Part shown: piece by piece, positions 18,129 to 56,443 of the stretch
How positions within the stretch are numbered: the first letter of the stretch is position 1
How the letters are laid out: each line of letters begins with the position of its first letter
Assembly (NCBI GenBank): GCA_035772405.1
Contig: JAYKKM010000047.1
Coordinates: 469,501-533,500, forward strand
Source: Chrysogorgia sp. JL179-B06
Lineage: Eukaryota > Cnidaria > Anthozoa > Scleralcyonacea > Chrysogorgiidae
Reading direction: 5' to 3'
Length of the DNA: 64,000 nucleotides
The notes under the pieces: generated by a model
The model's input: the letters and a program-made list of their open reading frames with translations, nothing else
What the model was told of the DNA's origin: nothing
Databases searched by the model: none
Translations under genes and position numbers: made by a program

Positions 18129-18129
18129 C

Positions 18130-18500
18130 AGGTACCTAAACCAAGTGGATTGGAGTATTATTGACGAGGCTCAAACGTGCGAAGAAAAGAACAGTATTTT
18201 CAATACTATTGTTTCGACAGGTTTAGATCTGCTCATGCCTGAGAAAGAAGTTAAACTCCATCACAGCGACCCTCCTTGGATTACCGATAACTTCAAACGC
18301 TTTGTCCAACGACGACTGTGGAAATCCCACGAGTAAGGAAAACCTGTCACGCAAATTATTATGCTTCAAAAGTGAGTCACCTCAAGCAGTCCAAACCTAA
18401 CTAGGAGTGGTGACTGAGGTCATAAACGTATTATCGGTCTGAAGCCAACCGGCTACAGTTAAACGAACACCAAGTGCAAAGAACTTAGAATATACTAGTT
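18130..18500 (+). pseudogene. LINE ORF2 linker fragment (plus strand)
   Basis: The text NTIVSTGLDLLMPEKEVKLH, then HSDPPWITDNFKRFVQRR and a later ANYYASKVSHLKQSKPN in another frame, is the endonuclease-RT linker of an animal CR1/L2-type LINE. It is in the opposite orientation to the adjoining RT fragment of what looks like the same family. Confidence 0.65.
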
Positions 18501-32266: not shown

Positions 32267-33229
32267 TTAACATGTAATCACAAAAAGCACTGGTCTGTTC
32301 GAGCCTCTTTGATTGAGGTCAGTTAGTGTGTTATGAAAAATGCGACGTTTCGCATTGCTCAGATGTCGCTTTAATACAGATCCAATTTTGAAATAAAGTA
32401 ATGGATCAATGATGGCATTTAACAACACGATTAGGTAGGTCCAGGTTGTTTTACGACGAAACGAGAGCGATTGACGATCTTCCTTGGTCGGATATAAGCT
32501 CCAAATTATGATACTTGGAATAGAGGAAGCGAAAAAGCTAAGCGCTACAAGCAACAGTCGAAATAGCAAACGATATTCGTTCATAAGGTCTTTCCGTTGT
32601 TGTCCAGCCATGACAGCAATGTGTTGTTTCTTGATGATCTTCCGTTGTTCCCTTGCCTTTTTAAGCATGTAACTGTTTAGTGCGGTAATAAGCAGTATTA
32701 GTGCGGCGTAATACACAATTGCTATATAAAGTAATACCTGAACACCTGCCAGGACGGACAAGGCAGTTACAAATAACAGACAAATAGAGGCACACCAAGG
32801 TACCCAGACCAAACGCTTGACTAGTCCAAGAGTCATGTAACTCGGGTATTTTAGTGAGTCGTAGATGGATAAAAAGCGATTGAACATCAAAAGCAATAGA
32901 TTTCCAGCGCTAGCATGAAGAGCAAGCTGAATACAACATCCCAAGGCCACCAAGCCGGACGCAGGAATAGTTTCAATGGCAAGTCGTGGAAACGCCAAAA
33001 GACTGACGACTGCATCAGCAATAGCCAAACTGAGGACGAACCAGTTAGAAGGAACATCGAGTAGAATATCTTTTGTTACAATAGTAACGATCACAGTAAT
33101 GTTTTCTATGGAGCCGATGAGACCCAATAAGCATTCAAAAAACTTTACTGCTACAAGCTCACCTGGTGTGAAAGGATGTGAAAAAATTGTGGTTGGATCT
33201 GAGGTGGCGTTTGGCGAAGAATTGCGCAT
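32267..33229 (-). CDS. Rhodopsin-like (class A) GPCR, intronless, unit A copy
   Basis: This is a 320-residue seven-helix receptor in one exon. The N-terminus is short and without a signal peptide, with two glycosylation sequons (N3, N7). TM1 has N43 in GSIEN and TM2 has LSLAIAD with D72. TM3 ends NRF (117-119) in place of DRY, TM4 has W145, and TM6 has P238 without the usual CWxP. TM7 reads NAIIDPLLY (271-279), the DPxxY variant of NPxxY. The loop between TM4 and TM5 is only a few residues and lacks a cysteine, so the common disulfide is not expected. Short ECL2, DPxxY and an SLKYPSYMT-like second loop resemble the melanocortin/adenosine/cannabinoid branch, but this is inference and the ligand is unknown. 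The start is the Met shared with unit B; an in-frame Met ten codons upstream (33259) exists only here. It is presumably at the cell surface, coupling to G proteins. Confidence 0.9.
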   Translation of the reverse strand: MRNSSPNATSDPTTIFSHPFTPGELVAVKFFECLLGLIGSIENITVIVTIVTKDILLDVPSNWFVLSLAIADAVVSLLAFPRLAIETIPASGLVALGCCIQLALHASAGNLLLLMFNRFLSIYDSLKYPSYMTLGLVKRLVWVPWCASICLLFVTALSVLAGVQVLLYIAIVYYAALILLITALNSYMLKKAREQRKIIKKQHIAVMAGQQRKDLMNEYRLLFRLLLVALSFFASSIPSIIIWSLYPTKEDRQSLSFRRKTTWTYLIVLLNAIIDPLLYFKIGSVLKRHLSNAKRRIFHNTLTDLNQRGSNRPVLFVITC

Positions 33230-33730
33230 CTTTGAAAGATGGATACGAGTCCACTCCACGTCAGCAATTGATTTATCTTAACAGTTGCAATACGCGACTA
33301 TATAAAAGCTGACAATGGTTGACAATTAAGTAAAAGAACACCTGGCCCGTCGCTGCGTCTTTGAATGAAAAATATTTTATTGCAAAAGAAGGCTTCGTAG
33401 TGTCAATTCAATCACAAGCTGCTGCATGCAGTTGTTAATTTAAACACGGTAACTCATACCATTTAAAAGTTATTTATTTGGTCGACATTTTCATTACCGA
33501 CGCGCTGTTTTTTGGCATAGTTGTCCATTTTCTGTTTTGTCACTAAAACCAGTGTCCTTTTTGTTTCATTTCGCACGAACAATTTGTCTAGTGGAAAAGC
33601 GGATTTAAGAAAAGGTCTCTCGTCTAAGATGATATATCTTTTCGTCCGACTAGACAGGAAATGGGACGATACATCTGAGACGGGAAATGCCTCTTTCGCT
33701 GGAGTTTATATCTGACAAGTTTGTCAACAA
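33230..33730. other. 5' flank of the GPCR gene
   Basis: No other gene is seen. It is nearly identical to 51854-52340 in unit B apart from a 6-bp insertion in B near 51880 (TTTTTTCACACC replaces CC) and a 21-bp deletion near 52298. A promoter cannot be defined with confidence. Confidence 0.5.
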
Positions 33731-34544
33731 GGATCCAGAGGGGTGCGAGCGTGGCTAGAGCCACGGTCAGATTTTCCTAATTAAAAATTAGAATTTAAGT
33801 TTAATTGAAAATAAATCATTAGTTATTAAAAGTTCAAGAGAGTAAGAATGAAGCTAGCCACAATGAAAACACTATTCAGATCCAGGGGCGGATCTAGGCC
33901 AAAATCTGACTGCTGCTAAGCTAAATGTCCGATGTGCGCCGTAGGCGCACACCCTCTAGGGGGGTTTGGGGGCATGCCCCCCCAAGAAATTTTTGAAAAT
34001 TGAAGGCTTAAAAACGCAATTCCTGCTAATTTCCGAAAGATTTCAAGTATTCCTGAATGACAGATTTCCACATTTTTAAGACGCATTTTCTTAGTCAACA
34101 AACCCACTGCGTGGCGGGAAAATTGCGGACACAAAATATGGATTGCGTCTTGGTATTAACTAGTTACTAGAACCGCATGTGGTTCGCACGTATGTTTTCA
34201 TGCTGCTAGGCTTTGCTCAGTAGTGTGTGGAAAGATTTCTAATTTCTTCTAATAAAAACAATGTAAAGTGGATTTCAACCGCCAATGTGCGTCAAATGCG
34301 TGTTATATGCGATACTAATATTCGTTTTCACGCCGTAAACGGTATAATTTCAAACTGTACAGTACATTATAACAGTTACGCTGACAAACTTTGCTTCTTT
34401 TCAATCTGAATTATATGCCTAGGCAAATACTTTTCGAATAAATTTTCTGTCTAACCCTCCCAGAAAAGAAACCCAAAACTATTTCGAATATAGGATATTC
34501 GTTTGGAATATAGGATGTTCGCCAAATTCGTTCGACGCGCACCA

Positions 34545-34862
34545 GAGCAGGAAAGTGTTTATATGCGTGTTGATTGACCACCAGACCACCCAAATAGACA
34601 GTTTAAAATGTTTGTATACCTGTTGGTTGAGCAGCAGAGCAGGAAAATAGACAGTTGAAAATATTTGTAGATGTGTTGGTTGAGCAGCAGAGCAGGAAAA
34701 TAGACAGTTATTTATAGTTATTTATTTATAGATATGTTGGTTGATACCCTGTGAGCAAGGGGAAACAAAGGAAAAGAAGGCTCTGCTCACAGGGTAGTTG
34801 GTTGACCACCATAGCAGGAAAATAGACAGTTAAAAATGTTTGCAGATGTGTTGGTTGACAAT
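34545..34862. repeat. Minisatellite of about 60 bp, interrupted by a hairpin
   Basis: About five copies of GTTGGTTGAGCAGCAGAGCA / GGAAAATAGACAGTT / AAAATRTTTGTAGATG. One copy is split by a palindrome at 34745-34796 (ACCCTGTGAGCA ... TGCTCACAGGGT), a word also found near 24335. Confidence 0.75.
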
Positions 34863-35214
34863 TTCATATACTACATATACTGTGCTATAGTTTGTAATAG
34901 ACCACTTGCACTATGATGTTTAATGGCATTATTTGACTACAATCACCAGAATGCTTTGCCAGTATCTTAACACTAATAGATAGAGGACACTGGCAAACCA
35001 TACTGGTACGTAGCCGTAGTCAAGTAATCCCATTGAAAAAAATGTCTATTGTTCTGCAACTTGATTTTCATAAAATTCACTATATATTTGCAACATGATA
35101 ACAATTGCAAAGTATGAAACATACCAATATAAAAGATTATTTTCAACAACTTTTTCTTTCTATTTTTCTCTTTTTCTGTTGCATTCTCAAATGTACGCAA
35201 TATCCTTTATATAA

Positions 35215-35480
35215 CCATCTGTTGTGGTCTAGTGGTTACCACACATGTCTATGAGCTGGGAGACACAGGTTCAAATCCTTGGTCGGACCTCCACTCAGGG
35301 TCTTATTGACTAAATAATTGAGGAGAAAGTGCTGCCTTTGCAATAATATCAGCAAATGGTAAGACTTTTGGGTCTTCTCGGATACCAACCTTAAATCATA
35401 GGCCCTCGGAACCCCTATCAATTGGGCTTCTAGCCTGTTCGGGTATTCCGTTCACCAAAAATGGAGTGATAAATCTAACA
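35215..35480 (+). mobile_element. tRNA-derived SINE
   Basis: TGTGGTCTAGTGGTTACCAC (A box region) and GGTTCAAATCCTTGG (B box) lie about 40 bp apart. A body follows with GAGAAAGTGCTGCCTTTGCA and ACTTTTGGGTCTTCTCGGAT. The tRNA part is degenerate, so it is a SINE and not a functional tRNA. Confidence 0.65.
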
Positions 35481-35837
35481 AACTTGGTATATCGTTCGGT
35501 TCCCTTTGGATGAAGCCCTCATCTGGCTGTAACTTTGTGACTGTAACGTTTTTGGTTTCATTACCTAATAAGTACTTTGAAATCTGAAATATTTTGACAA
35601 TATAAAATACATGATTTCAGGAGAAGCTTAACATCCACTTAAAACAAAACAAGTTGGGGACCACAAATAATTTGTATAAAATACCAAGCTAAGTTGTTTA
35701 TTAATACTTTTGAAATACTGAACTAGTTGCCCCAGAGGCAGGGGAAATTGCTGTTTTTTAACATTTGGAAAATGTTAAATTCCCCGCTATATATCCCAGG
35801 GGTTGGGGGCTGTGATTTCAAATCATACATAAAAGAC

Positions 35838-36517
35838 TTAAGGTGGCTCCCTACTGTTTCTTGAAAGGTGGAAAAAATGCAAATTTCAATCCCGAAAAGT
35901 GCCCATGGATATTTCGGAAAAGATTGAAACTAAAGTTATGCATAGAATAACTTTCAGGGCATCAAATACTATTAATGGCTAAAGTGTTTCATCTGTTGCT
36001 ATGACAACAGTGACGTTTCAAAATGGCCGAAAATGAACATTTAATCTAATTTATTTCGCAAACGAGTCGGTGACCCCCGATTTTTTTTGCATTTAAACGT
36101 TTCTTTTAGTTTAATTAATAAATAGGCAGTTTAAAAAAAAATTCTGTGGATCCAATTATTTTACACAAAAAAAATCATGTTTTTTTAGTTTTTTAAAAAT
36201 TGGATCCACAGAATCTTTTTCAAATTTGCCTATTCATTAATTAAACTAAAATAAATATTTAAATGCAAAAAATATCGGGGGTCACCGACTTGTTTGCGAA
36301 ATAAATCAGATTAAATGTTCATTTTCGGCCATTTTGAAACGTCACTGTTGTCATAGCAACAGATGAAACACTTTAGACATTAATAGTATTTGATGCCCTG
36401 AAAGTTATTCTATGCATAGCTTTAGTTTCAATCTTTTCCGAAATATCCATGGGCACCTTTCGAGATTGAAATTTGCATTTTTGCCACCTTTCAAGAAACA
36501 GTAGGGAGCCACCTTAA
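35838..36517. mobile_element. 680-bp near-perfect palindromic MITE with TTAA ends
   Basis: TTAA-GGTGGCTCCCTACTGT at 35838 and ACAGTAGGGAGCCACC-TTAA at 36517 are the ends of two arms of about 300 bp. The arms match almost throughout, for example CCATGGATATTTCGGAAAAG against its complement and TGGATCCACAGAAT near the centre. The centre is about 30 bp of A/T. TTAA on both sides is a piggyBac-like target pattern. There is no coding capacity. Confidence 0.85.
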
Positions 36518-36573
36518 GTATACCACCATACAGTATATACAAGACAGGTGAGCTATATGCAATCAGTTTAATC

Positions 36574-36655
36574 AATAACAATATAATATAATTTCAGACA
36601 ATAACAATATAATATAATTTCAGACAATAACAATACTGTATATAATATAATTTAT
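36574..36655. repeat. 26-bp tandem repeat
   Basis: Three copies of ATAACAATATAATATAATTT plus CAGACA, the last interrupted. A second small repeat (GAACATGTAAACTTAACTT variants) follows at 36735-36800. Confidence 0.75.
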
Positions 36656-37949
36656 TTTGGAAATGATGCAAGACTTGATGACTACAAGAACATATCAATC
36701 ATAACATCTTTGTCAATAGCTGAATCCTCAGACTAAACATGTAAACTTAAACATGTCTTAACTTGAACATGTAAACTTAACTTGAACACGTAAACTTAAC
36801 ACAAATGGACAAAGAATAATAGGATAAATACTGTATAATATGTATGCTGTTGCGATGTTCATTACATTTTCTGTCAGTAATATCATGTTTTGGTGATTGA
36901 GAGTTTGGTATTTGTCTCACACAAAATATAATCACTCGCTCAATTGAAGTTTAAACTCGGCGACTGGACAGCAAAAATATAGGTAACACCAAAGTTAATA
37001 TTCATGACTTTAGCTGTGTTTATATCGATTACATGTTAAATAATTATCATATTATTCATGAGCTATTTCATAAAAAATACATGCGGCAATGCTTACCTTA
37101 CTGGGAAGTAGTTTAAACAACGAGATTCCTGGCTAATTGGGAATTGAAGCTTCGCAAATAATTATAATACGCGCACGACCATCGACAGCTTAATTCTTCA
37201 TCTCCACATATAAAACCATTTGCGCGCATTCTTCCCTGAGCAAGGATAATTCTTGTTCTTTTTCTGCAGAAGAAAAGCTTCCCCAAGTATATTAAGCAAT
37301 TGCTGTAAGACCTTGTTGGAAGCCATCGTGGACATCGTGATTCGAACAGAACTCACAATAGTCTCGTCAATAAATAAGATCAACCGTGGTCTGAAACGAA
37401 ATTCTTACGCAATAGGCTTCCGAATATTTCCGATCTGACTGCTGCTGACTGCTGCTCGGGTTTGCTCGGCAAGGTGTCTGATTGGTTTGCTGCATCTGAC
37501 TGCTGCTCAGTTTACTAAAAATAGCCTCATTTGAGGCTATTTTAAGGTTTCAGGGCTGCTCACTAAGGAGAAAAGACCCTCCGTACGATGTTCCCGCTAT
37601 TGGTGCGCCGCTGCCGCGAGTGATGCTGCGCTAGGAAGCCTTCGACCGATTTAGACATACTTCAAGTAATAAATATATCCTGTATTACAATTTTAAGGAG
37701 TGTCAGCTGCCCAGAAGCGACCACGGGCGCATGAAATAAGAACCAAATGTTTCCGCATTTTCCTGCATTAATTAATTATAGGCAAAATCTGACTGCTGCT
37801 TGAGCAGCAGTTGCGCCCCTCTAAATCCGCCCCTGAGATCTTAAATAGCCGTGGAGATTAGCTGAAATTGAATTTTCCCGTTTCACACACGTCTATTGCG
37901 CCAGCAATCGTACCAGACAGCTGATAGGTCGAAGATGTTGCGATTGTTA

Positions 37950-38450
37950 CCGACAAGTTTGCGAGCGTGGTCTGATTCGCGCGAGAAGTTCGAGAAACGA
38001 GTTCTGCTAAATTCCGCCACGGTCAGCGTAAGATTCTGCTAAATTCCGCCACGGTCAGCGGACGGTAGAAGGGGTGCAAGCCAATCAGAGAGCCAGAATC
38101 TGCGTAATAGAGTGTCAGAATTTTGGCGGGAGCCACCCTCAGCCACTCTTGCGTAATACCGCAATGCATATTTGCTCGATCGGCTCTGGTCGGCACTGCA
38201 CGTCAGCTGAGTCGAACGCTCTTGTCTGTTCGGTTACATTGAATATCAAGTGATGAGTCACAGGAAATCAAGAGAAGTTGGTTTCCTTACGAAAGAAATG
38301 CGAAGGAATGATTTTCGAGGAGAGAAATCGAGTGCATCCCGAGCACGATTAATTATCTGTTTCAGTTTGTTCGTGTGAATTCTCGCGCATTCAGTTTCTA
38401 AAAGTCGAGGTCTGGCCATCGCCGTCCAGTGAGGTTAGTCGAGATTAATA
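37950..38450. promoter_or_regulatory. Promoter-like GC-richer patch inside the island
   Basis: This stretch is clearly richer in G+C and CpG than its surroundings. It has a 28-bp direct duplication (ATTCTGCTAAATTCCGCCAC-GGTCAGCG, ending about 38030 and 38060), an AGCCAATCAGAG CCAAT-type box near 38083 and TTTTGGCGGGAG (E2F-like) near 38122. TCCAGTGAG/GTTAGTCG near 38430 could serve as a splice donor. No downstream exon was recognised. This may be a captured promoter and first noncoding exon, or only a transposon promoter. Confidence 0.3.
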
Positions 38451-39361
38451 TTTATGTATTTATGCCAGAATTTATGTAAATAGTATAGCCTAGCTAAGTC
38501 GAACAAACGTAAACAAAATAGATCAAGTTGTGGCATTTGCTTTTCCCTCCACCAAAATCGCCAGGGGCTATAAACCAATATCACAATAGTTAAATCTGTT
38601 TAGACTGGTGTTTATAGTCAATTTAATTTGTGGATGGAGGTTTACTCTTGTATAAAAGCTTGTAATATAACAGATTAATCCATCCCTTCGACTTGTCAAG
38701 TGCCCAGCCAATAGATCAGAGGCTCAGAGCCTTAATTAATAATATTTTATAGTCTTAAATTATTACCTAAAATATTATAAAAATATTTTGTTTTATTGAT
38801 GTCTCCTACTCTACCAATATTATAATTAAAATTAAAAATTGTCAATGTGCATATTATTTTATCACCCTATACAGTGTATAGGGTTTGCATTTTGTAAGCA
38901 AATCATCTGGCACTGGTGGCTGGTTTTAGTCGGCCTAGTAGGCAGAGTTAAACCGAACTGACTTTTGTTCTTTTGAACAACCGGTGTTGTCACAGTTATC
39001 CCCATGTCTAAAATTTTCCCTTAATTCACATACCCAACAGAAATGCACTTAAATTATTATTCGAGCTCTGTTATTCTGTATCAGTATTAGATTTATGTTG
39101 ACCTTATTTGTATCAGTATTAGATTTGATTTATGTTGATGTGGATGTTAGTGAGCAAGTCGTTCAATTGAATATGATTTTAAGCTACTATGCTGTACAGC
39201 CTATGCTACAACATAAATTTAATACAGAATGGATTGTTGCATTATCTGTTCTATGGAAAATATGCTTCAGACAAACAATAAACTGTAAAAGGCTATCACC
39301 ATATACAAGAATGCAAACTTCAATATTCTTAATCTTCAATTAAGAATGACCAACTAAAATT

Positions 39362-39456
39362 ATATACATGTATAAATTAATATATATACACTATAAATAT
39401 ATATATACACTATAAATATATATACACTATAAATAAATATATATATATATATAAAC
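39362..39456. repeat. TATA(CACTA) microsatellite
   Basis: A repeated ATATATATACACTATAA unit grades into (TA)n immediately upstream of the plus-strand ribozyme motif. Confidence 0.8.
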
Positions 39457-39460
39457 TATA

Positions 39461-39531
39461 AAGTATATGAGAGTCGTCTGATGATTGCCACAGGCATGAA
39501 ACACAGTGTTACGGCATCTGTACATATACTT
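39461..39531 (+). ncRNA. Hammerhead ribozyme motif (type I), plus strand
   Basis: The core CTGATGA (39478-39484) is followed by stem II (TGCC-ACA-GGCA) and GAAA (39498-39501). A short stem III (ACA-CAG-TGT) precedes the cleavage position after T39510 (GTT). Stem I pairs GTCGT with ACGGC beside the core, then after an internal loop AAGTATATG pairs perfectly with CATATACTT. The open helix I and very short helix III match the type I hammerheads reported in Penelope-like and other small retroelements. The first stem II pair is T-T and the triplet GTT is less usual, so activity is uncertain. Confidence 0.7.
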
Positions 39532-39605
39532 TATAACTAGCTCTACAAATTTTGTATCGAGCACTCTTACTTATTGGGATATTGTCCATGTTTTGGTCTA
39601 TTCAC

Positions 39606-39608
<3 letters not shown>

Positions 39609-39690
<82 letters not shown>
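39609..39690. repeat. (TA)n microsatellite between the two ribozyme motifs
   Basis: About 80 bp of almost uninterrupted TA. It produces long Tyr-Ile open frames on both strands that are artefacts. Confidence 0.95.
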
Positions 39691-39691
<1 letters not shown>

Positions 39692-39736
39692 CTACAGACG
39701 GTACCGTTTCGGCCTTTTGGGCCTCATCAGTGTAGT
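39691..39736 (-). ncRNA. Hammerhead ribozyme (type I), minus strand
   Basis: Read on the minus strand, stem I is ACTACA/TGTAGT and the core is CTGATGA. Stem II is GGCC-CAAAA-GGCC, followed by GAAA (with C as the next base). Stem III is ACG-GTAC-CGT and the cleavage site is GTC. Every invariant core base is present. Helix III is minimal and helix I open, as in retrotransposon hammerheads. Directly upstream, CTCATCAG can pair with the core's CTGATGAG, an alternative hairpin that would hide the catalytic core. The flank on the other side is (TA)n. Confidence 0.82.
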
Positions 39737-39927
39737 GCTGATGAGCAGGATGAAGATGACTGCTATTTACAGTCACCCTTGATGCACACAAAATGTGGGA
39801 CATCAAGAACCATGCCAGAGCGCTCATATAATATATATATTATATATTAGCTAATATATATATATATATTAGCTATCGATTGACCAGGTGGGAATCGTAC
39901 TCATAGGATAAATATCTAAGCGCAGCA

Positions 39928-40120
39928 TAATATTTTGACAAAAGCCATGCCACTCTAATGAGTAAAACAATCATAATATATATTATATTATAATATTTAT
40001 ATTATTTTTTATTTTCTCTGAAGATGTTGTGATAACAACAAAACATTAGAACTTTAAATATATAAATATATGATTTAACTCGTGTTTTACTCATTATAAT
40101 GGCTTTTGTCAAAATATATG
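39928..40120. repeat. Foldback with a degenerate hammerhead-like centre
   Basis: ATTTTGACAAAAGCCATG...ATGAGTAAAAC is repeated inverted as GTTTTACTCAT...ATGGCTTTTGTCAAAAT. Between the arms lies CTGAAGA, then TGTTGT-GATA-ACAACA and AAAC (40018-40044), which looks like a hammerhead core with the required G12 changed to A. Confidence 0.5.
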
Positions 40121-40142
40121 CTGGGTTACTGTAATGGGCCTG

Positions 40143-40575
40143 TTTAACCTTCCACCAAGATTATGTAAGGTTGAACATTTTAACCTTCCTTACTGTTTTG
40201 TTGCTCCACCAAAATGATATTGAATTAATTAACCTTCCTGACTACAATTTTGTTGCTCCACCAATATGATTTTGAACTACTGTAATTAACATTCTTGTAT
40301 ACTATTTTGCTGCTCCACCAAGATGATGTTGAACTGTTTAACCTTCCTGACTAATGTTTTGCTGCTCCACCAAGATGATTTTGAACTAATTAACCTTCTC
40401 ATCTTAACCACCATTTTTGCTGAACTTTTTGAACTGTTTAACCTTCCTACAGTATCTACTATTTTGCTGTTCCACCAAGATGATATTGAACTATCTAACC
40501 TTCTTAACCACCATTTTGGTGCTAAACAAAGATGATTTTTGAACTGTTTTTCATTCCTATTTTGCTGAACCATAG
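40143..40575. repeat. Minisatellite, about 55-60-bp unit
   Basis: About seven diverged copies with TTTTGCTGCTCCACCAAGAT, GATTTTGAACT and TTAACCTTCCTGACTA in order. Spacing drifts between copies and there is no coding constraint. Confidence 0.75.
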
Positions 40576-42090
40576 TTAATACAATACTTGAGTTTCCAGT
40601 CCATTCCTGTACATGAACCTTACAAGTTAGTTTTACTACATGTATCTTGAATAAAGAAAATAATTTGCAAAGTATCCATCTTGTTCAAACCCTGTTTTAT
40701 GTTACTTCAAGTGGAAAGTACAGTACAGTGATGAGTGAGTAACATTTATCTTTGAGATGTATTGCAGGTGTAAGCTACAGTACACTAGTTAGTTAATTAA
40801 TTCTTCAGTATTGTCAATTGTGTATTTATTTCATAAACTGCTTCATAGTACTACTAGATATAAATATGTTACATATTTACAATACCTATGGTACAACACT
40901 AGTTCATCTTGTTTTACAAAACGAACTACATCAAAGAAATAAATATTGGTGGATTTTCAGCAAAAAAATGTTTTCTTGTTAGTAGAGACTAAGGAACAGA
41001 GAATGTGATTTCACTGTTTTGGAAGTACATGTATATATGCAGAAAATTCGAGCTACATTACAAGCTTGAACAAAATATTGGACTTTCGTTCAAGCAAAAT
41101 GAGGTGCAAAAGGCAATTATTTTTGTGAAAGGCACAGCATTTTTTCAGTTTTTTCTTCTGAAAAGTGTTCTCAAAATGCAGGAAATAGCGTTTTAGAGGT
41201 TCTAGTATTTCAAATTTTCCAGGGGAGGATCCTCCCGTACCCCCCTGGAAATGTACACTTCCCAGATGAGCCACGGTCAGATTTTGGGCTAGATCCGCCC
41301 CTGTCCAGTTCCAATGATATGATCATAAACAATTATTCACACCAAACTACGTGAAGTTAATAGCGTTTTTAAATAATAGCGAGACTTAAGAAAACCTGCG
41401 ATGCGGACACCAACTAATGAAATAAAATTAAATCAGTAATTGAATTTTACGCCCTTTAAACAGATCGAGAATAGTGAATTTCAGGGTATCCTTTCTCATA
41501 AATGTTTAATAAATAACTCAACTGTGCCTAATCTACTGAACTATACGGTTCCATGCGATTCTATATATATATATATATATTATGTAAGATCGTTGGATAT
41601 GTTGAAATTAGTTATAATTTAGTCAAATTTCTATTTTGTCTAAAATTGTTGTGGAAAACTGTGCTAAAACTATAGGGGTTATTATCTATTTACATGTAAA
41701 AGAACTGACTATTATATATGCACTATAAAAGCTTCAAACAGTAAGCGGATGATGTGTTGATGCGCACACGTATTTCTTGTTAAGTATATAAGCATCCTAA
41801 TTGGTACAGTGTATATAATGATTCGCGGGGCAATGACGCGCGACGTATATTATAATCACTTCATTGTCTGTTTGGGTTTTATTGAAACTTTCAAGAATGT
41901 TTGCATGTGCACAAGACGTCAAAATTCCCGTGTTTGGATACTCTGATCCTCCATTATTGACCAGTCAGAGCGTGGTTGTTGTGTACATATTATTTAATTT
42001 TATAAACGCCCTTTCCACACTATATCAGAACTCAATTCCGCCATCACATCATGTGAAAGGACATTCGGAGCCTCCTGAATATAGTTTTAG

Positions 42091-42881
42091 TTAAAGGACA
42101 TTGGCAACACAAATTAAGTTTGTCATTTGAAAAAACTCTTAAAATAATGAAGAATATTAATTTATAGTTCTTTCATATTTTACTTAGTTCTTGAGATATT
42201 TAGACTTATGTGATATTCAAATGAGATGATCTACAGTATGACGTCATAACCTGGCAAATACATTTTAACATATTGGAAAATCGTGAATATCTTTATGATT
42301 ATTAAATGAAATTACTTGAAACTTTGCATGTAGATACATACCACTAAACTGAAGATCATCGGTCAAGTCTTATGGTTTCCATGGTAACGGATTAGTTTAC
42401 AGACCTCTTGATTTCGAAAACAAAACTATTTGTTTTCTGACATAGTAGACTTTGTACCAACTTCAAATCTCAGTTTCGAATTGGCTATGACAGTGAACAT
42501 TTTCTAAACAGGTACCAACCCAAATAAGGTTCGGCACTGAAGAGAAAACAAATAATTTTGTTTTCGAAATCAAAAGGTCTGTAAAATAATCTGTTACCAT
42601 GACAACCATAAGACTTGAACGATGATCTTCAGTTTAGTGGTATGTATCTACATGCAAAGTTTCAAGTAATTTCATTTAATAATGATAAAGATATTCACGA
42701 TTTTCTAATATGTTAAAATTTTTCCCAGGTTTTGACGTCATAGATCATCTCATTTGAATATCGCATAAGTCTAAATATCTCAAGAACTAAGTAAAATATG
42801 AAAGAACTATAAATTAATATTCTTCATTATTTTAAGAGTTCTTTCAAATAAAACAAACTTAATTTTTGTTGCCAATGTCCT
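42091..42881. mobile_element. TTAA foldback MITE-1, unit A (AGGACATTGGCAACA)
   Basis: TTAA-AGGACATTGGCAACAC opens 350-bp inverted arms, for example GATCATCTCATTTGAATATC and GTTACCATG-CAACCATAAG. They close with TGTTGCCAATGTCCT. In unit A the right TTAA and the first 20 or so bases of the adjacent MITE-2 are deleted. The intact copy is 53126-53920 in unit B. Confidence 0.85.
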
Positions 42882-43440: not shown

Positions 43441-43815
43441 TCACAAAAAGCACTGGTCTTTTGAGCTTCTTTGATTGAGGTCAGTTACTGTGTTGCGAGT
43501 TAAAATGCGACGTTGCCCGTTGATCAGATGTCGCCTTAATACAGATCCAATTTTGAAATAAACTGATGGATCAATGATGACATTTAACAATACGATTAGG
43601 TAGGTCCAGGTTGTTTTACGACGAAACGAGAGCAATTGACGATCTTCCTTGGTCGGATATAAGCTCCAAATTATGATACTTGGAATAGAGGAAGCGAAAA
43701 AGCTAATCGCTACAAGTAACAGTCGAAATAACAAACGATATTCGTTCGTAAGGTCTTTCCGTTGTTGTCCAGCCATGACAGCAATATGTTGTTTCTTGAT
43801 GATCTTCCGTTCCAT
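43441..43815 (-). pseudogene. 5'-truncated GPCR fragment, unit A
   Basis: The fragment corresponds to the intact receptor from K197 to the stop: end of the third intracellular loop, TM6 (SIPSIIIWSLY), TM7 (NVIIDPSVYF) and tail. TM1-TM5 are absent; the sequence becomes unrelated just after MERKII, at about 43812. The frame stays open but with several substitutions relative to the intact copies, including an L-to-I change in TM6 not shared with unit B. It cannot form a receptor alone. Confidence 0.85.
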
Positions 43816-44007
43816 GTTCCGTTCTACGGTTCCATGCTATTCCATGTATATGTAAGATTGTTGGATATGTTGAAATTAGTTATAGTTATTCGACTGTTAA
43901 AAAGCAATATAAAGGTTAGCATTTACCGGCAACCATCTCCGAGCCCGTCCCAAACCCCCAGCCCCTTTGCGCCGGCTACGCAGGCTATACGGCAACCACT
44001 GTTTATA

Positions 44008-48454: not shown

Positions 48455-48930
48455 CTAAGTGCCTATCCGGGATTTGGGGGTTTTACATATTCGTAATCCT
48501 TGGTTCTACCAAGAAGAAATGTAATATATCTTGTCGTTCGAAAATTTCATCTTCATGCCTTTTAATTTTCATTTGCTAAAGTTGATTTACTATTCACAGG
48601 AAATGACGTCAAAGCAGGGACACGCCGAGTCATTACAAACTAATTCAACAGTGAAATACAAAGAAAGTTTGGCTCTGAACTTTAAACACACCTGTTTAGA
48701 CAAAATTCGCTCAATTCCCAAACTTTCTTGATATTTCACTTCTGAATCAGTGTGCAAAGTTTTTGCGTGTCCCTGCTTTGACGTCATATCCTGTGAATAG
48801 TAAATCACATCAGCAAGGGAAAAGGTATGAAGATGAAATTTTCGCACAACAAGATATTTCACAATTCTTCTCAAGAGATTTCAAAGATCACAAATATGTA
48901 AAATCCCCAAACCCCGGATAGGCACTTTAT
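48455..48930. mobile_element. Foldback MITE, CCTATCCGGG tip (unit B)
   Basis: Full-length counterpart of 27401-27872, with a 5' CTAAGTGCCTATCCGGG end. Internal inverted arms keep CACAGGAAATGACGTCAAAG and its complement almost exactly. Confidence 0.75.
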
Positions 48931-49117
48931 GAAAATTGAACTGAAACAGAGCCTTTGGATTCATAATGACTTGTGGCAAAAAGAGATAGCGAAAGAAGTA
49001 GCTAAACCGGGAGGAGGGCGTTCTATCCGCCGACCTGAAATGCCGAGGATCACCCATTTCAGAGAGTCATTAACTAAGCCTGAAAGATGCTCAGCACTTA
49101 TAAGGTTGATGCCTTAA
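48929..49117 (+). other. Shared 62-codon open frame (unit B copy)
   Basis: Same frame as 30312-30500, differing at three residues (MPRITHF against MPGIIHF region). Unrecognised. Confidence 0.25.
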
Positions 49118-49468
49118 CCCATCCAAATCCTTCAGGTCATGGATGAAGTGTTTGAGGCACAGCACTTCTGTGAAGTGATGAGGATGATATCATCCTGCGC
49201 TCGTTTATTGGGTTATTTATTTTTACAGAAGAGTTAGTGGGTGGAAAAGCTGCTATTTTCCTGAACGATTAGTTCCTGGGGCTGGTGAGCTCTGCTCTCG
49301 GACTGTCACAAAATAGCCATTGCCCCCTTTGCCGCATTCATGTATACAATGCCTCGGGCAGGAATTTTTTGAAGAAGGAATCTTTTGATAAGCTCACTTG
49401 GTTGGTTTTTATCTTAATCCTTTCAGTGGGAAATATTTGGTTTTGTTATCTAACTTTGTGACTTTGCA

Positions 49469-49573
49469 ACTGTGCCTATACTCCATGTTCTTAATTTTTA
49501 AACTTAATAACGCGAAGAATATTTGAAAAAATTCCCACGAAAAATTAAGAACATGGAGTATATATAGGCACAG
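49469..49573. repeat. Hairpin CTGTGCCTATACTCCATGTT (unit B)
   Basis: Unit B copy of the hairpin at 28407 and 30848; arms of about 40 bp. Confidence 0.65.
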
Positions 49574-50890
49574 TTTTCCACAGAATTTTAGGCATTCAAC
49601 ACAAACCGTTGTCAATTGATCCCACGCTCGCTACAAGGTCAATTTCATTTTAAAGCGATTTGATTTGACTATGAATGGGAAGGATCAATTTTCTCTGTCA
49701 ACATCTCTCACTTGTAAAGATATGTAAATTTGGTTCTTTTTGTTTCATATTCATATTCTACACACAAAATATCTACGACTACGCGGCATATGTCTATCAA
49801 TTAAATTATCGCTCGAAAATAGGGTGTGTTGTGTGTTGAATTTCAGGGAATAATTTACACCAATGATTATAGATCAGTTAAAATTTATTTGGCTTTTCCA
49901 TCCTTTTTGCTTTAACTCGTTGTACAGTTTAGTGATCACCCTTGCAGATACTTTCTTCAGATATTTACCAGTGTTCATATACATAAATCATGTAACTCAT
50001 CTAAAATAGATATATTTTATCATCGAAACAGCTAAGACTCACTTTATTGATTTCGTGTCGACTACCAAACTGATAATGTTTTATGTACGTGTCACTGGTG
50101 TACACAAAAATCGACTGTCAAAAGTCAAATTTCTATTTTGTCATCTAAAATTCTTGTGAAAAACTGTACCAATATACCCCCATATCCTATACTACTTGAA
50201 TGGATTATTATCTATTTTCATATAAAAGAACTGAACGCTCTATATATACGCCAATATCAGCATCTGAACTATGGAACAATCTGCCTAAGAGATACTCGTC
50301 AAATCCCAAACATAAATTTATTTAAATCTAAATTAAAACGTTATCTGTTTGAACTGGTTTGATTGTTCATGCCATTGTAGAGCAAATAGAACATTTATGT
50401 ATATTATATTACTATATCTTATAATATTCACTGCATAAGTAATTCATTATTTGAACAAGCAGCCGATCAGGGATATATGACTATAAAAGCTTCAAACAGT
50501 AAGCGGATGAGGTGTTGTTGCGTACACGTATTTCTTGTTAAGTATATAAGCATCCTAATTGCAGGTAAAGTGTATGATTCGCGTGGGGCAATGACGCGCG
50601 ATGTAATCACTTCATTGGATATTGCATTGTCTTTTTTGGGTTTTATTGAAACTTGAATAAGAATGTTTGCATGTGTACAAGACGTCGAAATTCCCATGTT
50701 TGGATAGTATTTCATTGAATAGAATTTAATTTAATTTTATAAATGACATTCGGAGCCTCCAGAATAGTTTTAGTATAAGTTCTAGTCGATCAGTTCTAGT
50801 TAAGAATTGTTTTAAGCCAGAGGCAACTTATTCGAGGCCCTTGCTCAACATTCATGATCCCCTAAATGTTGGGTAGTTTCAACCATATTT

Positions 50891-51853
50891 TTAACATGTA
50901 ATCACAAAAAGCACTGGTCTGTTCGAGCCTCTTTGATTGAGGTCAGTTAGTGTGTTATGAAAAATGCGACGTTTCGCATTGCTCAGATGTCGCTTTAATA
51001 CAGATCCAATTTTGAAATAAAGTAATGGATCAATGATGGCATTTAACAACACGATTAGGTAGGTCCAGGTTGTTTTACGACGAAACGAGAGCGATTGACG
51101 ATCTTCCTTGGTCGGATATAAGCTCCAAATTATGATACTTGGAATAGAGGAAGCGAAAAAGCTAAGCGCTACAAGCAACAGTCGAAATAGCAAACGATAT
51201 TCGTTCATAAGGTCTTTCCGTTGTTGTCCAGCCATGACAGCAATGTGTTGTTTCTTGATGATCTTCCGTTGTTCCCTTGCCTTTTTAAGCATGTAACTGT
51301 TTAGTGCGGTAATAAGCAGTATTAGTGCGGCGTAATACACAATTGCTATATAAAGTAATACCTGAACACCTGCCAGGACGGACAAGGCAGTTACAAATAA
51401 CAGACAAATAGAGGCACACCAAGGTACCCAGACCAAACGCTTGACTAGTCCAAGAGTCATGTAACTCGGGTATTTTAGTGAGTCGTAGATGGATAAAAAG
51501 CGATTGAACATCAAAAGCAATAGATTTCCAGCGCTAGCATGAAGAGCAAGCTGAATACAACATCCCAAGGCCACCAAGCCGGACGCAGGAATAGTTTCAA
51601 TGGCAAGTCGTGGAAACGCCAAAAGACTGACGACTGCATCAGCAATAGCCAAACTGAGGACGAACCAGTTAGAAGGAACATCGAGTAGAATATCTTTTGT
51701 TACAATAGTAACGATCACAGTAATGTTTTCTATGGAGCCGATGAGACCCAATAAGCATTCAAAAAACTTTACTGCTACAAGCTCACCTGGTGTGAAAGGA
51801 TGTGAAAAAATTGTGGTTGGATCTGAGGTGGCGTTTGGCGAAGAATTGCGCAT
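50891..51853 (-). CDS. Rhodopsin-like (class A) GPCR, intronless, unit B copy
   Basis: The 320-residue product is identical by eye to the unit A receptor (32267-33229), including NRF in TM3, D72, W145, P238 and DPLLY. The Met at 51853 is the first in-frame one here, because a short insertion upstream breaks the extension present in unit A; this fixes the likely true start. Upstream flank, downstream spacer and the neighbouring GPCR fragment are also shared. Near-identity at nucleotide level means recent duplication or ongoing gene conversion. The function is as for the unit A copy: an orphan cell-surface receptor whose ligand cannot be told from sequence. Confidence 0.9.
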   Translation of the reverse strand: MRNSSPNATSDPTTIFSHPFTPGELVAVKFFECLLGLIGSIENITVIVTIVTKDILLDVPSNWFVLSLAIADAVVSLLAFPRLAIETIPASGLVALGCCIQLALHASAGNLLLLMFNRFLSIYDSLKYPSYMTLGLVKRLVWVPWCASICLLFVTALSVLAGVQVLLYIAIVYYAALILLITALNSYMLKKAREQRKIIKKQHIAVMAGQQRKDLMNEYRLLFRLLLVALSFFASSIPSIIIWSLYPTKEDRQSLSFRRKTTWTYLIVLLNAIIDPLLYFKIGSVLKRHLSNAKRRIFHNTLTDLNQRGSNRPVLFVITC

Positions 51854-53125
51854 CTTTGAAAGATGGATACGAGTCCACTTTTTTCACACCGAGTCAGCAA
51901 TTGATTTATCTTAACAGTTGCAATACGCGACTATAAAAGCTGACAATGGTTGACAATTAAGTAAAAGAACACCTGGCCCGTCGCTGCGTCTTTGAATGAA
52001 AAATATTTTATTGCAAAAGAAGGCTTCGTAGTGTCAATTCAATCACAAGCTGCTGCATGCAGTTGTTAATTTAAACACGGTAACTCATACCATTTAAAAG
52101 TTATTTATTTGGTCGACATTTTCATTACCGACGCGCTGTTTTTTGGCATAGTTGTCCATTTTCTGTTTTGTCACTAAAACCAGTGTCCTTTTTGTTTCAC
52201 TTCGCACGAACAATTTGTCTAGTGGAAAAGCGGATTTAAGAAAAGGTCTCTCGTCTAAGATGATATATCTTTTCGTCCGACTAGACAGGAAATGGGAGCC
52301 TCTTTCGCTGGAGTTTATATCTGACAAGTTTGTCAACAAGATCTTCCAATGATATGATCATAAACAATTATTCACACCAAACTACGTGAAGTTAATAGCG
52401 TTTTTAGATAATAGCGAGACTTAAGAAAACCTGCGATGCGGACACCAACTAATGAAATCAAATTAAATCAGTAATTGAATTTTACGCCCTTTAAACAGAT
52501 CGAGAATAGTGAATTTCAGGGTATCCTTTCTCATAAATGTTTAATAAATAACTCAACTCTGCCTAATCTACTGAACTATACGGTTCCATGCGATTCTATA
52601 TATATATATATATATTATGTAAGATCGTTGGATATGTTGAAATTAGTTATAATTTAGTCAAATTTCTATTTTGTCTAAAATTGTTGTGGAAAACTGTGCT
52701 AAAACTATAGGGGTTATTATCTATTTACATGTAAAAGAACTGACTATTATATATGCACTATAAAAGCTTCAAACAGTAAGCGGATGATGTGTTGATGCGT
52801 ACACGTATTTCTTGTTAAGTATATAAGCATCCTAATTGATACAGTTTATATAATGATTCGCGGGGCAATGACGCGCGACGTATATTATAATCACTTCATT
52901 GTCTGTTTGGGTTTTATTGAAACTTTCAAGAATGTTTGCATGTGCACAAGACGTCAAAATTCCCGTGTTTGGATACTCTGATCCTCCATTATTGACCAGT
53001 CAGAGCGCGGTTGTTGTGTACATGTTATTTAATTTTATAAACGCCCTTTCCACACTATATCAGAACTCAATTCCGCCATCACATCATGTGAAAGGACATT
53101 CGGAGCCTCCTGAATATAGTTTTAG

Positions 53126-53920
53126 TTAAAGGACATTGGCAACACAAATTAAGTTTGTCATTTGAAAAAACTCTTAAAATAATGAAGAATATTAATTTAT
53201 AGTTCTTTCATATTTTACTTAGTTCTTGAGATATTTAGACTTATGTGATATTCAAATGAGATGATCTACAGTATGACGTCATAACCTGGCAAATACATTT
53301 TAACATATTGGAAAATCGTGAATAGCTTTATGATTATTAAATGAAATTACTTGAAACTTTGCATGTAGATACATACCACTAAACTGAAGATCATCGGTCA
53401 AGTCTTATGGTTTCCATGGTAACGGATTAGTTTACAGACCTCTTGATTTCGAAAACAAATCTATTTGTTTTCTGACATAGTAGACTTTGTACCAACTTCA
53501 AATCTCAGTTTCGAATTGGCTATGACAGTGAACATTTGCTGAACAGGTACCAACCCAAATAAGGTTCGGCACTGAAGAGAAAACAAATAATTTTGTTTTC
53601 GAAATCAAAAGGTCTGTAAAATAATCTGTTACCATGGCAACCATAAGACTTGAACGATGATCTTCAGTTTAGTGGTATGTATCTACATGCAAAGTTTCAA
53701 GTAATTTCATTTAATAATGATAAAGATATTCACGATTTTCTAATATGTTAAAATTTTTCCCAGGTTTTGACGTCATAGATCATCTCATTTGAATATCGCA
53801 TAAGTCTAAATATCTCAAGAACTAAGTAAAATATGAAAGAACTATAAATTAATATTCTTCATTATTTTAAGAGTTCTTTCAAATAAAACAAACTTAATTT
53901 TTGTTGCCAATGTCCTTTAA
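53126..53920. mobile_element. TTAA foldback MITE-1, unit B (complete)
   Basis: TTAA at 53126-53129 and 53917-53920; ends AGGACATTGGCAACA and TGTTGCCAATGTCCT; arms about 350 bp. It shares its right TTAA with MITE-2. Confidence 0.88.
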
Positions 53921-54370
53921 CTCTTTCCTGTCCGGCTGAAAAATATCTAAAATTGAACTACCTCTTTGTCCTATCGATATCTCTGGAAATATCCATAACT
54001 GTTGCGAAACCTATACATTTTCTGAAAGCCCGATAAACCGGCTTTTACTTGTACTTTTGAATTTCCCGAACAATACATTATGTTAATATAAATTAGCATT
54101 AATTATCATAAATCAGGTTGAAAAACCTCCATTTTGCTAGAAAACGCCATCTTGGGCGCCCGTGTAGGATCATGAAAATTCAAAACGCCACCAATTGCAG
54201 AGTTGTATATGAAATCAAATCAAACTTGGCGTGTGACTGGATCTTATGTGCCTGGCGCTTGTCGAATTTCAATTTTTAATCTGGCGTTACCGTGTGCCGT
54301 GTTTTTCGATTGACGACTTAGGGGTCTTCGCTATGACCCCTTTTGACTGTGTCGGACAGGAAAGAGTTAA
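53917..54370. mobile_element. TTAA MITE-2, unit B (complete)
   Basis: TTAA-CTCTTTCCTGTCCGGC at the left and GTCGGACAGGAAAGAG-TTAA at the right; 454 bp. It abuts MITE-1 at a single TTAA, so one of the two used the other's target duplication. Confidence 0.85.
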
Positions 54371-54483
54371 GTTCTAGTTGATCAGTTCTAGTTAAAAATT
54401 GTTTTATGCCAGACAGAGACAAATTATTCGAAACCCTTGCTCAACATTCACGATCCCCAAAATGTTGAGTAGTTAACATGAAA

Positions 54484-54858
54484 TCACAAAAAGCACTGGT
54501 CTTTTGAGCTTCTTTGATTGAGGTCAGTTACTGTGTTGCGAGTTAAAATGCGACGTTGCCCGTTGATCAGATGTCGCCTTAATACAGATCCAATTTTGAA
54601 ATAAACTGATGGATCAATGATGACATTTAACAATACGATTAGGTAGGTCCAGGTTGTTTTACGACGAAACGAGAGCAATTGACGATCTTCCTTGGTCGGA
54701 TATAAGCTCCAAATTATGATACTTGGAATAGAGGAAGCGAAAAAGCTAAGCGCTACAAGTAACAGTCGAAATAACAAACGATATTCGTTCGTAAGGTCTT
54801 TCCGTTGTTGTCCAGCCATGACAGCAATATGTTGTTTCTTGATGATCTTCCGTTCCAT
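54484..54858 (-). pseudogene. 5'-truncated GPCR fragment, unit B
   Basis: Counterpart of 43441-43815 with the same breakpoint after MERKII and the same substitutions relative to the intact gene (for example DLTNEY, QLLSF, NVIIDPSVY). The truncated copy therefore existed before the 11-kb unit was duplicated. Only TM6, TM7 and the tail remain. Confidence 0.85.
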
Positions 54859-55042
54859 GTTCCGTTCTACGGTTCCATGCTATTCCATGTATATGTAAGA
54901 TTGTTGGATATGTTGAAATTAGTTATAGTTATTCGACTGTTAAAAAGCAATATAAAGGTTAGCATTTACCGGCAACCATCTCCGAGCCCGTCCCAGCCCC
55001 TTTGCGCCGGCTAAGCAGGCTATACGGCAACCACTGTTTATA

Positions 55043-55280
55043 AAGGGTTTTGACACACGAGGTGACAAATCGCGGGGACGTGTCGCAGGGACATGTTGTA
55101 GGGATAAATCCCGTCGTATGCACCATGCGAAATCTTGTCGCGATGACAACATTTTAATAAACCAATCAAAGAAAGTTATTTTATTTTCCCTTTCCTTCTC
55201 GTGTGTCCTCCCACAACAGGGAAAATGTCTTCGCGACACGCCCCAGCGATTTGTCGCCTCGTGTGTCCTAACCTTAATGG
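55043..55280. mobile_element. MITE with GACACACGAGG inverted ends, unit B
   Basis: Unit B copy of 44008-44244, same ends and interior with two or three substitutions. Confidence 0.75.
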
Positions 55281-55659
55281 TTAACTGCATTGAGCACTCA
55301 GTACTGTTAAAACAATTGTAGTGTCGTTCATATGAGACAGGATATCTCATGCGCGTACATTCATATTTCATACGAATCATTACTTAATAATTGTTTTTAA
55401 TAATAATTAAAACATAAAATACTTATTAATAATTCCTCGAATAATTCACGAAGAAAAAATTAAACAAAAGAAATGAATGTTTAATGAATGGTTCAAATCA
55501 ATCACAAAATCCTCCTGATTTACATGTTAAACTATTCCTTCGATTCACCCGGCTAAAATAGCTATAATTTAAATAAACATGAACATTTAGATGTATTGTA
55601 TTGTATCCGATACACAAACTATCGCCTTCGCCTCGAGCTTGTATATACAATACAATACG

Positions 55660-56443
55660 CGGCCACTTATATTGTAAATAGTACAAAAGAGATGGCTAAA
55701 CTAAAAATACGTATACGCAACAACTCTTCGCCCGCTTACTGTTTCAATTGTCAAACTTTTATAGTGTAGTTCCATGCTTACAGTAGTTCTTTTACTTGAA
55801 TTAGGTAATAGCCCATTCATTTGCCAAACTTGAATTGATTTTCAGTGGACAATATCTCTGGGAGCGCTGTGTTGTCTGAATTCAATTGTTTCATAGGGCA
55901 TTAAACGTAACTAGTAAATAGCCCAAACCTTTTAATTTTATGGGTTCAGTACCTTCACTGAACAGAATAGTTGGAAAGTCTACTGCTGTTTCTACCATCA
56001 ATCACTAAGAAAGAAATTACTTGTTTTGAAATTACATGACATGTACTGTAGCTGCACCTGCTTGTTGACAATAATCTAGCTGATATTGTGTTTTTACATA
56101 CTTTATTTTTCATATCTTATATACAAACGAAAACCTTCTGTCTCAGAGTCTTACTTTATATGTCCCCATGAACTGTAATATGAACCCCGCCTTTTGGCAT
56201 CTTATAACATGTCTGTGATTGGTTAATTAAATCATTAGTTACATCACAACATTTCCCTCTTTCTTTACACTTAAAATCAATCTTATTTACAGACAATATA
56301 AATCAAAATTATTGCTCTAGATCAAAACCTCAATCAATAAATCAAATCACTATAACCCTAAATTTGTACATCCAAAATCTCAGTGTTCATAGTTAACACA
56401 AATTTCCAAAGAAATTTGGCTGACTTCTTTCTCTACGAGGGTA
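55660..56443. repeat. 0.78-kb direct repeat left of the BEL fragment
   Basis: Matches 60613-61389 and, without interruption, 44651-45427 in unit A. It includes the gypsy LTR (56063-56251). Breakpoints are CGGCCACTTATATTG on one side and CTACGAGGGTA on the other. Confidence 0.85.
56063..56251 (-). mobile_element. Ty3/gypsy-type LTR, unit B left copy
   Basis: Same TGTTGTGATG...TTGTCAACA LTR (minus strand), with the polypurine tract next to it at 56252-56266. Confidence 0.72.

What the first reader, a model, noticed from the sequence alone, without database searches (positions are those of the whole stretch)
39691..39746. Complete minus-strand hammerhead ribozyme with a built-in core-masking hairpin
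All invariant hammerhead bases are present (CTGATGA, GAAA, GTC) with three well-paired helices (ACTACA/TGTAGT, GGCC/GGCC, ACG/CGT). Immediately upstream, CTCATCAG can pair with the CTGATGAG of the core, so the RNA could switch between an active fold and a blocked one. Hammerheads are known in Penelope-like elements and retrozymes; the masking arm is what I find unusual.
Basis: partly seen in the sequence, partly recalled or inferred. Interest (0 to 1): 0.75.

Follow-up and report, generated by a model that had tools for sequence, protein, structure and literature searches.

The report
Hammerhead ribozyme with possible blocking arm
A stretch of what looks like animal DNA encodes a textbook self-cutting RNA (a type I hammerhead ribozyme), and the RNA just before it is predicted to fold over the ribozyme's active core; the ribozyme is a familiar kind, and whether the blocking arm matters could not be tested because no other copies could be reached.

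Summary
Minus strand 39691-39736 has every invariant hammerhead base and three helices. Rfam's type I model aligns end to end at 31.0 bits, 3 below its curated threshold. A full descriptor finds 2 such motifs in the window and none in 30 shuffles. The arm CTCATCAG (plus 39738-39745) complements all eight bases of CTGATGAG. With it, the blocked fold beats the hammerhead by about 4 kcal/mol; removing it raises predicted stem I pairing from 0.002-0.24 to about 0.87.

The arm's significance is modest: 2.2% of shuffles of this TCATC-rich flank contain the same 8-mer, though none of 74 viral-contig hammerhead-type sites has 7 nt or more. Conservation is untested: the genome search did not complete (13 tries).

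It is a solitary copy beside (AT)41, with no tandem repeat and no recognisable Penelope gene nearby, so I file it only as a type I hammerhead, not as a retrozyme or Penelope element. Core blocking by a complementary sequence is published for plant retrozymes and viroids and described as exceptional in animal ones (PMC7229834). A second type I hammerhead-like motif lies 175 bp away on the other strand.

The parts
39691..39736 (-). type I hammerhead ribozyme (stem I 6 bp, stem II 4 bp with loop CAAAA, stem III 3 bp with loop GTAC), cleavage expected after GTC at plus coordinate 39697
   Evidence: descriptor scan; RF00163 31.0 bits full length; coordinates
39738..39745 (-). arm CTCATCAG, fully complementary to the core bases CTGATGAG (39723-39730)
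   Evidence: (only CTGATGAG on the minus strand of the window with the arm within 200 nt upstream)
39723..39745 (-). predicted blocking hairpin: 8 bp, 7-nt loop CACTACA which holds the stem I 5' strand
39755..39807 (-). two adjacent upstream hairpins (39755-39778 and 39778-39807) of the same structured leader
   Evidence: folds; coordinates; 39691-39825 z -2.71, 1 of 200 shuffles as good
39609..39690 (.). (AT)41 tract directly beyond stem I, probable insertion target or 3' junction of the element
   Evidence: interpretation inferred
39457..39535 (+). second type I hammerhead-like motif on the opposite strand (core part 39473-39515), stem I with internal loop and 13-bp outer helix; cleavage base would be U
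   Evidence: core; outer helix; no Rfam match up to E 1; the hammerhead fold is not its predicted minimum, -15.6 against -23.9 kcal/mol

Best explanation
A genuine type I hammerhead with a short, palindromic stem III (ACGGUACCGU), left at the 3' edge of a solitary, non-coding retroelement copy that probably inserted at an AT repeat in an animal genome (inferred). When transcribed on the minus strand, the arm CUCAUCAG comes out first and closes an 8-bp hairpin over CUGAUGAG as soon as the core is made, so most molecules are predicted to start in a blocked fold with stems II and III free to form (shown by computation only). Cleavage would then need the stem I strand UGUAGU to invade the hairpin loop ACUACA, which is its own partner, or help from a second copy (10-bp stem III dimer) or a protein. 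After cleavage the hairpin would keep the core closed and disfavour religation (inferred). Whether selection made the arm is left open.
For: All invariant bases and three helices; full-length alignment to Rfam Hammerhead_1 at 31.0 bits; 0 of 30 shuffles with such a site. Blocked ensemble better than the hammerhead ensemble by 4.09, 4.14, 3.99 and 4.37 kcal/mol in four contexts. Growing-chain folds: block probability about 0.98 once the core has emerged; at the end 0.42-0.89 for the block against 0.002-0.24 for stem I with the arm present, and stem I 0.85-0.87 with the arm removed. Core-only dimer minimum is exactly the double hammerhead, -37.2 kcal/mol. PMC11167929 (passages): a Penelope-like hammerhead cleaved only with its protein present, and insertions favour AT-rich DNA. 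PMC7229834 (abstract, Results parts 1-2 of 3, Discussion): minimal and canonical type I hammerheads are plentiful in animal genomes.
Against: Rfam score is below the curated threshold (31.0 against 34). Even the bare core has a slightly better non-hammerhead minimum (-12.0 against -10.4), and the 51-nt core region is not unusually stable (z -1.02). Nearest-neighbour energies leave out the non-canonical core pairs and tertiary contacts, so the 4 kcal/mol gap is probably too large. The arm 8-mer arises in 2.2% of flank shuffles. In the dimer the blocked form still wins (-51.0 against -37.8 with the arms held unpaired), so dimerisation alone is not predicted to release it. No second copy in the window, so the retroelement origin and its ends are inferred. 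The host being an animal is inferred from 7tm_1 and Pao peptidase matches.
Confidence: 0.6

Rival explanations
1. The ribozyme is real but the arm is an accident of a TCATC-rich flank in one decayed copy; it has no role and other copies lack it.
For: 2.2% of shuffles of the own 60-nt flank hold the 8-mer and 13% at least 7 nt; none of 74 distinct viral-contig sites with the same core has 7 nt or more, so such arms are not a general hammerhead trait; the copy is solitary.
Against: All eight core bases are complementary, none mismatched, and the arm sits at hairpin distance (7-nt loop); the leader as a whole is more stable than its shuffles (39690-39780: z -3.50, 0 of 200; 39691-39825: z -2.71, 1 of 200).
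Confidence: 0.45
2. The copy descends from an animal retrozyme whose circular RNA is protected from re-cutting by the arm, as the complementary sequence does in plant retrozymes and viroids.
For: Type I hammerhead and a strongly self-paired leader. PMC7229834 Discussion says the abundant animal circles must be blocked somehow, and that plant retrozymes and viroids block the core by complementary pairing; PMC4918200 passages describe this in plants.
Against: No tandem copy in the window and no circle shown; stem I runs straight into (AT)41, leaving no clear loop 1. The same Discussion says that most animal retrozyme circles leave the hammerhead free, mussel ones excepted.
Confidence: 0.15
3. 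The two opposite-strand hammerheads belong to one element with ribozymes in both polarities, viroid-like.
For: Two type I descriptors 175 bp apart on opposite strands around one AT tract; 0 of 30 shuffles has even one strict site.
Against: The two have unlike sequences; the + motif has U at the cleavage position, no Rfam match up to E 1 and a non-hammerhead minimum. AT-rich DNA could simply have received two insertions. No second copy of the pair is known.
Confidence: 0.05
4. Chance resemblance, not a ribozyme.
For: Below the Rfam gathering score; the short pattern alone is expected 1.81 times in such a window.
Against: Complete descriptor with three helices, absent from 30 shuffles; full-length alignment to the type I model.
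Confidence: 0.04

Closest known systems
Type I hammerhead ribozyme, Rfam RF00163 Hammerhead_1
   Same: Topology, invariant core, three helices, GUC cleavage site; model aligned 1-45 of 45
   Different: 31.0 bits, 3 under the gathering score; stem III only 3 bp with a palindromic loop; no room for the loop 1-loop 2 contact because stem I abuts (AT)41
Minimal type I hammerheads of Penelope-like elements and Terminons (PMC7761336, PMC6155905, PMC11167929, passages only)
   Same: Short helices, lack of clear tertiary contacts, AT-rich surroundings, possible need for a dimer or protein
   Different: Those usually lack stem III and sit in pLTRs next to an RT/GIY-YIG gene; here stem III is present and no pLTR or such gene was found nearby
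Metazoan non-LTR retrozymes (PMC7229834)
   Same: Type I hammerhead, highly self-paired non-coding RNA, low G+C
   Different: Those are tandem repeats of about 170-400 nt giving circles, mostly with an unblocked ribozyme; here a single copy, with the core predicted to be blocked
Plant LTR retrozymes and hammerhead viroids (PMC4918200 passages, PMC7229834 Discussion)
   Same: Hammerhead blocked by a complementary sequence in the same RNA
   Different: Plant retrozymes use type III hammerheads in LTRs and the block is a long hairpin of the LTR region; here a local 8-bp hairpin next to a type I core
RAGATH-1 hammerhead, Rfam RF03152
   Same: Hammerhead preceded by a hairpin; weak match including the leader (18.2 bits)
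   Different: Far below its gathering score of 56.3

Membership tests
Type I hammerhead ribozyme | Invariant core CUGANGA, GAAA and a cleavage triplet NUH | tested here: met
   CTGATGA, GAAA, GTC
Type I hammerhead ribozyme | Three helices with stem I open | tested here: met
   6, 4 and 3 bp; Rfam type I model 1-45/45
Type I hammerhead ribozyme | Rfam gathering score (a curation cut-off, not a structural feature) | tested here: not met
   31.0 against 34 bits; none in the whole-window search
Type I hammerhead ribozyme | Self-cleavage after GUC | not testable with these tools
   needs in vitro transcription
Metazoan non-LTR retrozyme | Tandem repeats of a unit of about 150-450 bp, each with a hammerhead | tested here: not met
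   no second copy of the 39691-39825 region within 38500-41000 or elsewhere in the window
Metazoan non-LTR retrozyme | Circular and linear unit-length RNA | not testable with these tools
   no RNA data
Metazoan non-LTR retrozyme | Loop 1-loop 2 tertiary contact | tested here: inconclusive
   stem I is followed at once by (AT)41; no loop 1 defined on the 3' side
Penelope-like element | RT plus GIY-YIG coding sequence next to the hammerhead-bearing pLTR | tested here: not met
   no ORF over 132 aa in 36500-42500; Pfam on 11 of those 38 ORFs gave no RT or GIY-YIG (one weak DUF846 match). A weak GIY-YIG match lies 21 kb away at 17774-18157 (E 0.0022, below cut-off)
Penelope-like element | Hammerhead in direct pLTR copies | tested here: not met
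Plant-retrozyme or viroid-like blocked hammerhead (works like) | Core paired with a complementary stretch in the same RNA | tested here: met
   predicted only:
Plant-retrozyme or viroid-like blocked hammerhead (works like) | Block conserved among copies | not tested
   The genome search gave no answer in 13 tries

The most novel reading that the evidence does not exclude
An animal type I hammerhead that carries its own local, selected lock: an 8-nt antisense arm that folds over the core during transcription and opens only by loop invasion, dimerisation or protein binding, so that the retroelement RNA (or circle) is cut only at a certain stage. It would be an animal answer, by self-pairing, to the open question of what keeps ribozyme-bearing circles from cutting themselves.
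Probability: 0.15. Interest if true: 0.6.

Novelty: new member of a known kind. Interest (0 to 1): 0.32.

Why it matters
PMC7229834 states that animal retrozyme circles stay intact although most leave their ribozyme free to fold, and concludes that something other than self-pairing must block it. If this arm is conserved, self-pairing is a solution in at least one animal family, and the block can be tested with a short transcript. If it is not conserved, this is one more of the thousands of type I hammerheads in animal genomes.

Tried and rejected
Rejected or led nowhere. (1) Host-genome copies: the genome search (own) gave 'busy or cannot be reached' in all 13 calls. (2) Relatives in IMG/VR: arm + core + CGAAAC gave 2 loci, in which I see no stem II by eye; exact-type HHR1 pattern 0; looser core pattern 67 stretches and the pattern of the second motif 17, used as a control for the arm; CATCAG..CTACACTGATGAG 1 (no GAAA follows within 40 nt); upstream hairpin pattern 5, none with a CTGANGA core in the next 80 nt. 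(3) genome contigs: CTACA-type pattern 0; 7-nt arm + core pattern 38 stretches: with L087 the script listed 39 matches, of which 2 have stem II of 4 bp or more (L100, L105), both with at most 2 bp of stem I, so none is a hammerhead by this test. (4) Phage records, distant BLAST: 3 records, 17-24% of the query, E 0.5. (5) A plus-strand hammerhead that uses the arm's complement CTGATGAG at 39738: looked at by eye, no GAAA after the would-be stem II. (6) tRNA-derived SINE head upstream: ARAGORN found none in 39600-40200. (7) Rfam Pestivirus 3'UTR, snoR11 and similar matches: AT-rich, far below gathering scores, taken as chance. (8) Minimal hammerhead without stem III: scan found none in the window, 1 in 40 shuffles.

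Control details: the control began from 90 matches (73 + 17); sites with less than 60 nt upstream were dropped and identical 100-nt contexts collapsed, leaving 59 + 15 = 74; not every one was checked to be a real hammerhead, and some look coding. One search failed (wrong function name) and was rerun.

Full report
What is there. On the minus strand at 39691-39736 the sequence reads ACTACA CTGATGA GGCC CAAAA GGCC GAA ACG GTAC CGT C TGTAGT (the last A of GAAA opens stem III), a complete type I hammerhead with stems of 6, 4 and 3 bp and cleavage expected after GTC at 39697. A descriptor that asks for the core, the three helices and the cleavage triplet finds two strict sites in the 64-kb window and none in 30 dinucleotide shuffles; with a relaxed core it still finds the same two, and 1 in 30 shuffles. 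The bare pattern CTGATGA...GAAA is not significant (3 against 1.81 expected).

Rfam. No hammerhead reaches a gathering score in the whole window. In 901 bases the best of the clan is HH9, 25.2 bits against 52, E 0.00087. In 61 bases it is RF00163 Hammerhead_1, aligned from first to last model position, 31.0 bits against 34, E 1e-6. I still call it a type I hammerhead because each structural feature is met; the gathering score is a curation cut-off.

The arm. CTCATCAG (minus strand, plus 39738-39745) is the exact complement of CTGATGAG, 7 nt before it. The loop CACTACA holds the stem I 5' strand. Forced-fold ensembles: hammerhead worse than blocked by 4.09, 4.14, 3.99 and 4.37 kcal/mol in four contexts from 59 to 291 nt. 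As the chain grows the block is at about 0.98 once the core is out; later it varies between 0.25 and 0.88, and at full stem I length the hammerhead stem I stands at 0.24 or less. Cutting off the arm brings stem I to 0.87; cutting off 3 nt of it gives 0.38. These energies ignore the core's non-canonical pairs and any tertiary contact, so they favour the block too much. The bare core itself has a slightly better alternative minimum (-12.0 against -10.4).

Is the arm more than chance? By base composition an exact 8-mer in 20 positions has a chance of 2.4e-4, and 0.17% of all 60-nt stretches of the window hold it. But the flank itself is TCATC-rich, and 2.2% of its own dinucleotide shuffles hold the 8-mer, 13% at least 7 of it. 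Among 74 distinct sites with related cores in IMG/VR viral contigs the longest upstream complement to the core is 6 nt (1 site), and none has 7 or more; these are unrelated hammerheads and not all were verified, so this says only that such arms are not a usual by-product. A scan of one genome each for 84,980 bacterial and archaeal species for arm + core + CGAAAC gave 38 stretches, none of them a hammerhead by stem I and II. The proper test, other copies in the host genome, could not be run: 13 calls unanswered.

Dimers. The stem III strand ACGGUACCGU is self-complementary. Two bare cores fold, as the minimum, into the double hammerhead with a 10-bp stem III (-37.2 kcal/mol). With the arms present the blocked dimer is at -51.0 against -37.8 for the double hammerhead with arms held unpaired, so the dimer alone is not predicted to open the lock.

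Surroundings. Stem I abuts an (AT)41 tract, 39609-39690. Upstream the RNA forms two more hairpins (39755-39778, 39778-39807); 39691-39825 is more stable than 199 of 200 shuffles, and the 91-nt piece 39690-39780 than all 200. No second copy of this unit lies in the window. The 36500-42500 region has no ORF over 132 aa; of its 38 ORFs of 50 aa or more, 11 were scanned against Pfam, with one weak DUF846 match and no RT or endonuclease. The whole 7.6-kb block 33732-41308 is missing from a 97%-identical paralogous copy (29982-33731 matches 48566-52340, 41309-45427 matches 52344-56443), so it was gained or lost after that duplication. The window looks like an invertebrate's: rhodopsin-type receptor (7tm_1), Pao peptidase, RVT_1; the organism is not known to me.

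A second motif. Plus strand 39473-39515 is a type I hammerhead by the same descriptor, with a stem I internal loop and a 13-bp outer helix, 39457-39535. Its cleavage base would be U; it has no Rfam match up to E 1; its predicted minimum is not the hammerhead (-23.9 against -15.6), and the 65-nt core region is no more stable than its shuffles. Two insertions into AT-rich DNA are the simple reading; one element with ribozymes in both polarities is not excluded.

Literature. PMC7229834 (abstract, Results parts 1-2 of 3, Discussion): more than 6000 type I hammerheads in one coral genome, minimal and canonical; animal retrozymes as tandem repeats giving circles; plant retrozymes and viroids block the core with a complementary sequence while most animal ones, some mussel ones excepted, do not. 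PMC4918200 (passages): the plant block. PMC11167929 (passages): a Penelope-like hammerhead that cleaved only with its protein, with AT-rich targets. PMC6155905 and PMC7761336 (passages): Penelope hammerheads are minimal, usually without stem III. The two main papers on Penelope hammerheads are not held.

Verdict. A real, ordinary kind of ribozyme motif, with an arm that would physically block it if the energies are near the truth. The arm's selection and use are unproved. Shown: sequence, structure match, shuffles, predicted energies. Inferred: animal host, retroelement origin, AT-repeat insertion, release by invasion, dimer or protein.

Noticed in passing
window 39457-39535 (+): Second type I hammerhead-like motif on the opposite strand, with stem I internal loop and a 13-bp outer helix; U at the cleavage position; not its own predicted minimum fold.
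   Followed up: partly
window 40011-40054 (+): TTCT-CTGAAGA-TGTTGT-GATA-ACAACA-AAACATT-AGAA looks by eye like a decayed minimal hammerhead without stem III, with the G of GAAA lost or changed; the minimal-motif scan did not report it.
   Followed up: no
window 39923-40123: About 200-bp inverted repeat (72% over 220 columns) that resembles a small palindromic transposon.
   Followed up: no
window 33732-41308: 7.6-kb non-coding block absent from the paralogous copy at 52340/52344; GCCACGGTCAGATTTT occurs near both ends.
   Followed up: partly
window 35836-36519: Large near-perfect palindrome: the 684-bp stretch matches its own reverse complement at 93%.
   Followed up: no
window 32267-33277, 50891-51883, 43441-43836, 54484-54879 (all -): Tandem duplicates of a rhodopsin-type receptor gene, the first a 336-aa open frame with a 7tm_1 match, the last two partial.
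   Followed up: partly
window 17774-18157 (-): Weak GIY-YIG match (E 0.0022, below Pfam cut-off), possibly a Penelope-like element fragment.
   Followed up: no
L070, L072-L076, L078-L083, L085 (IMG/VR): A family of viral-contig hammerhead-type sites (CTGATGATTGCC..GGCATGAAACA) with near-identical upstream sequence, shortly before an ATG preceded by a GGAGG-like stretch; could be 5'-end processing of a phage gene.
   Followed up: no
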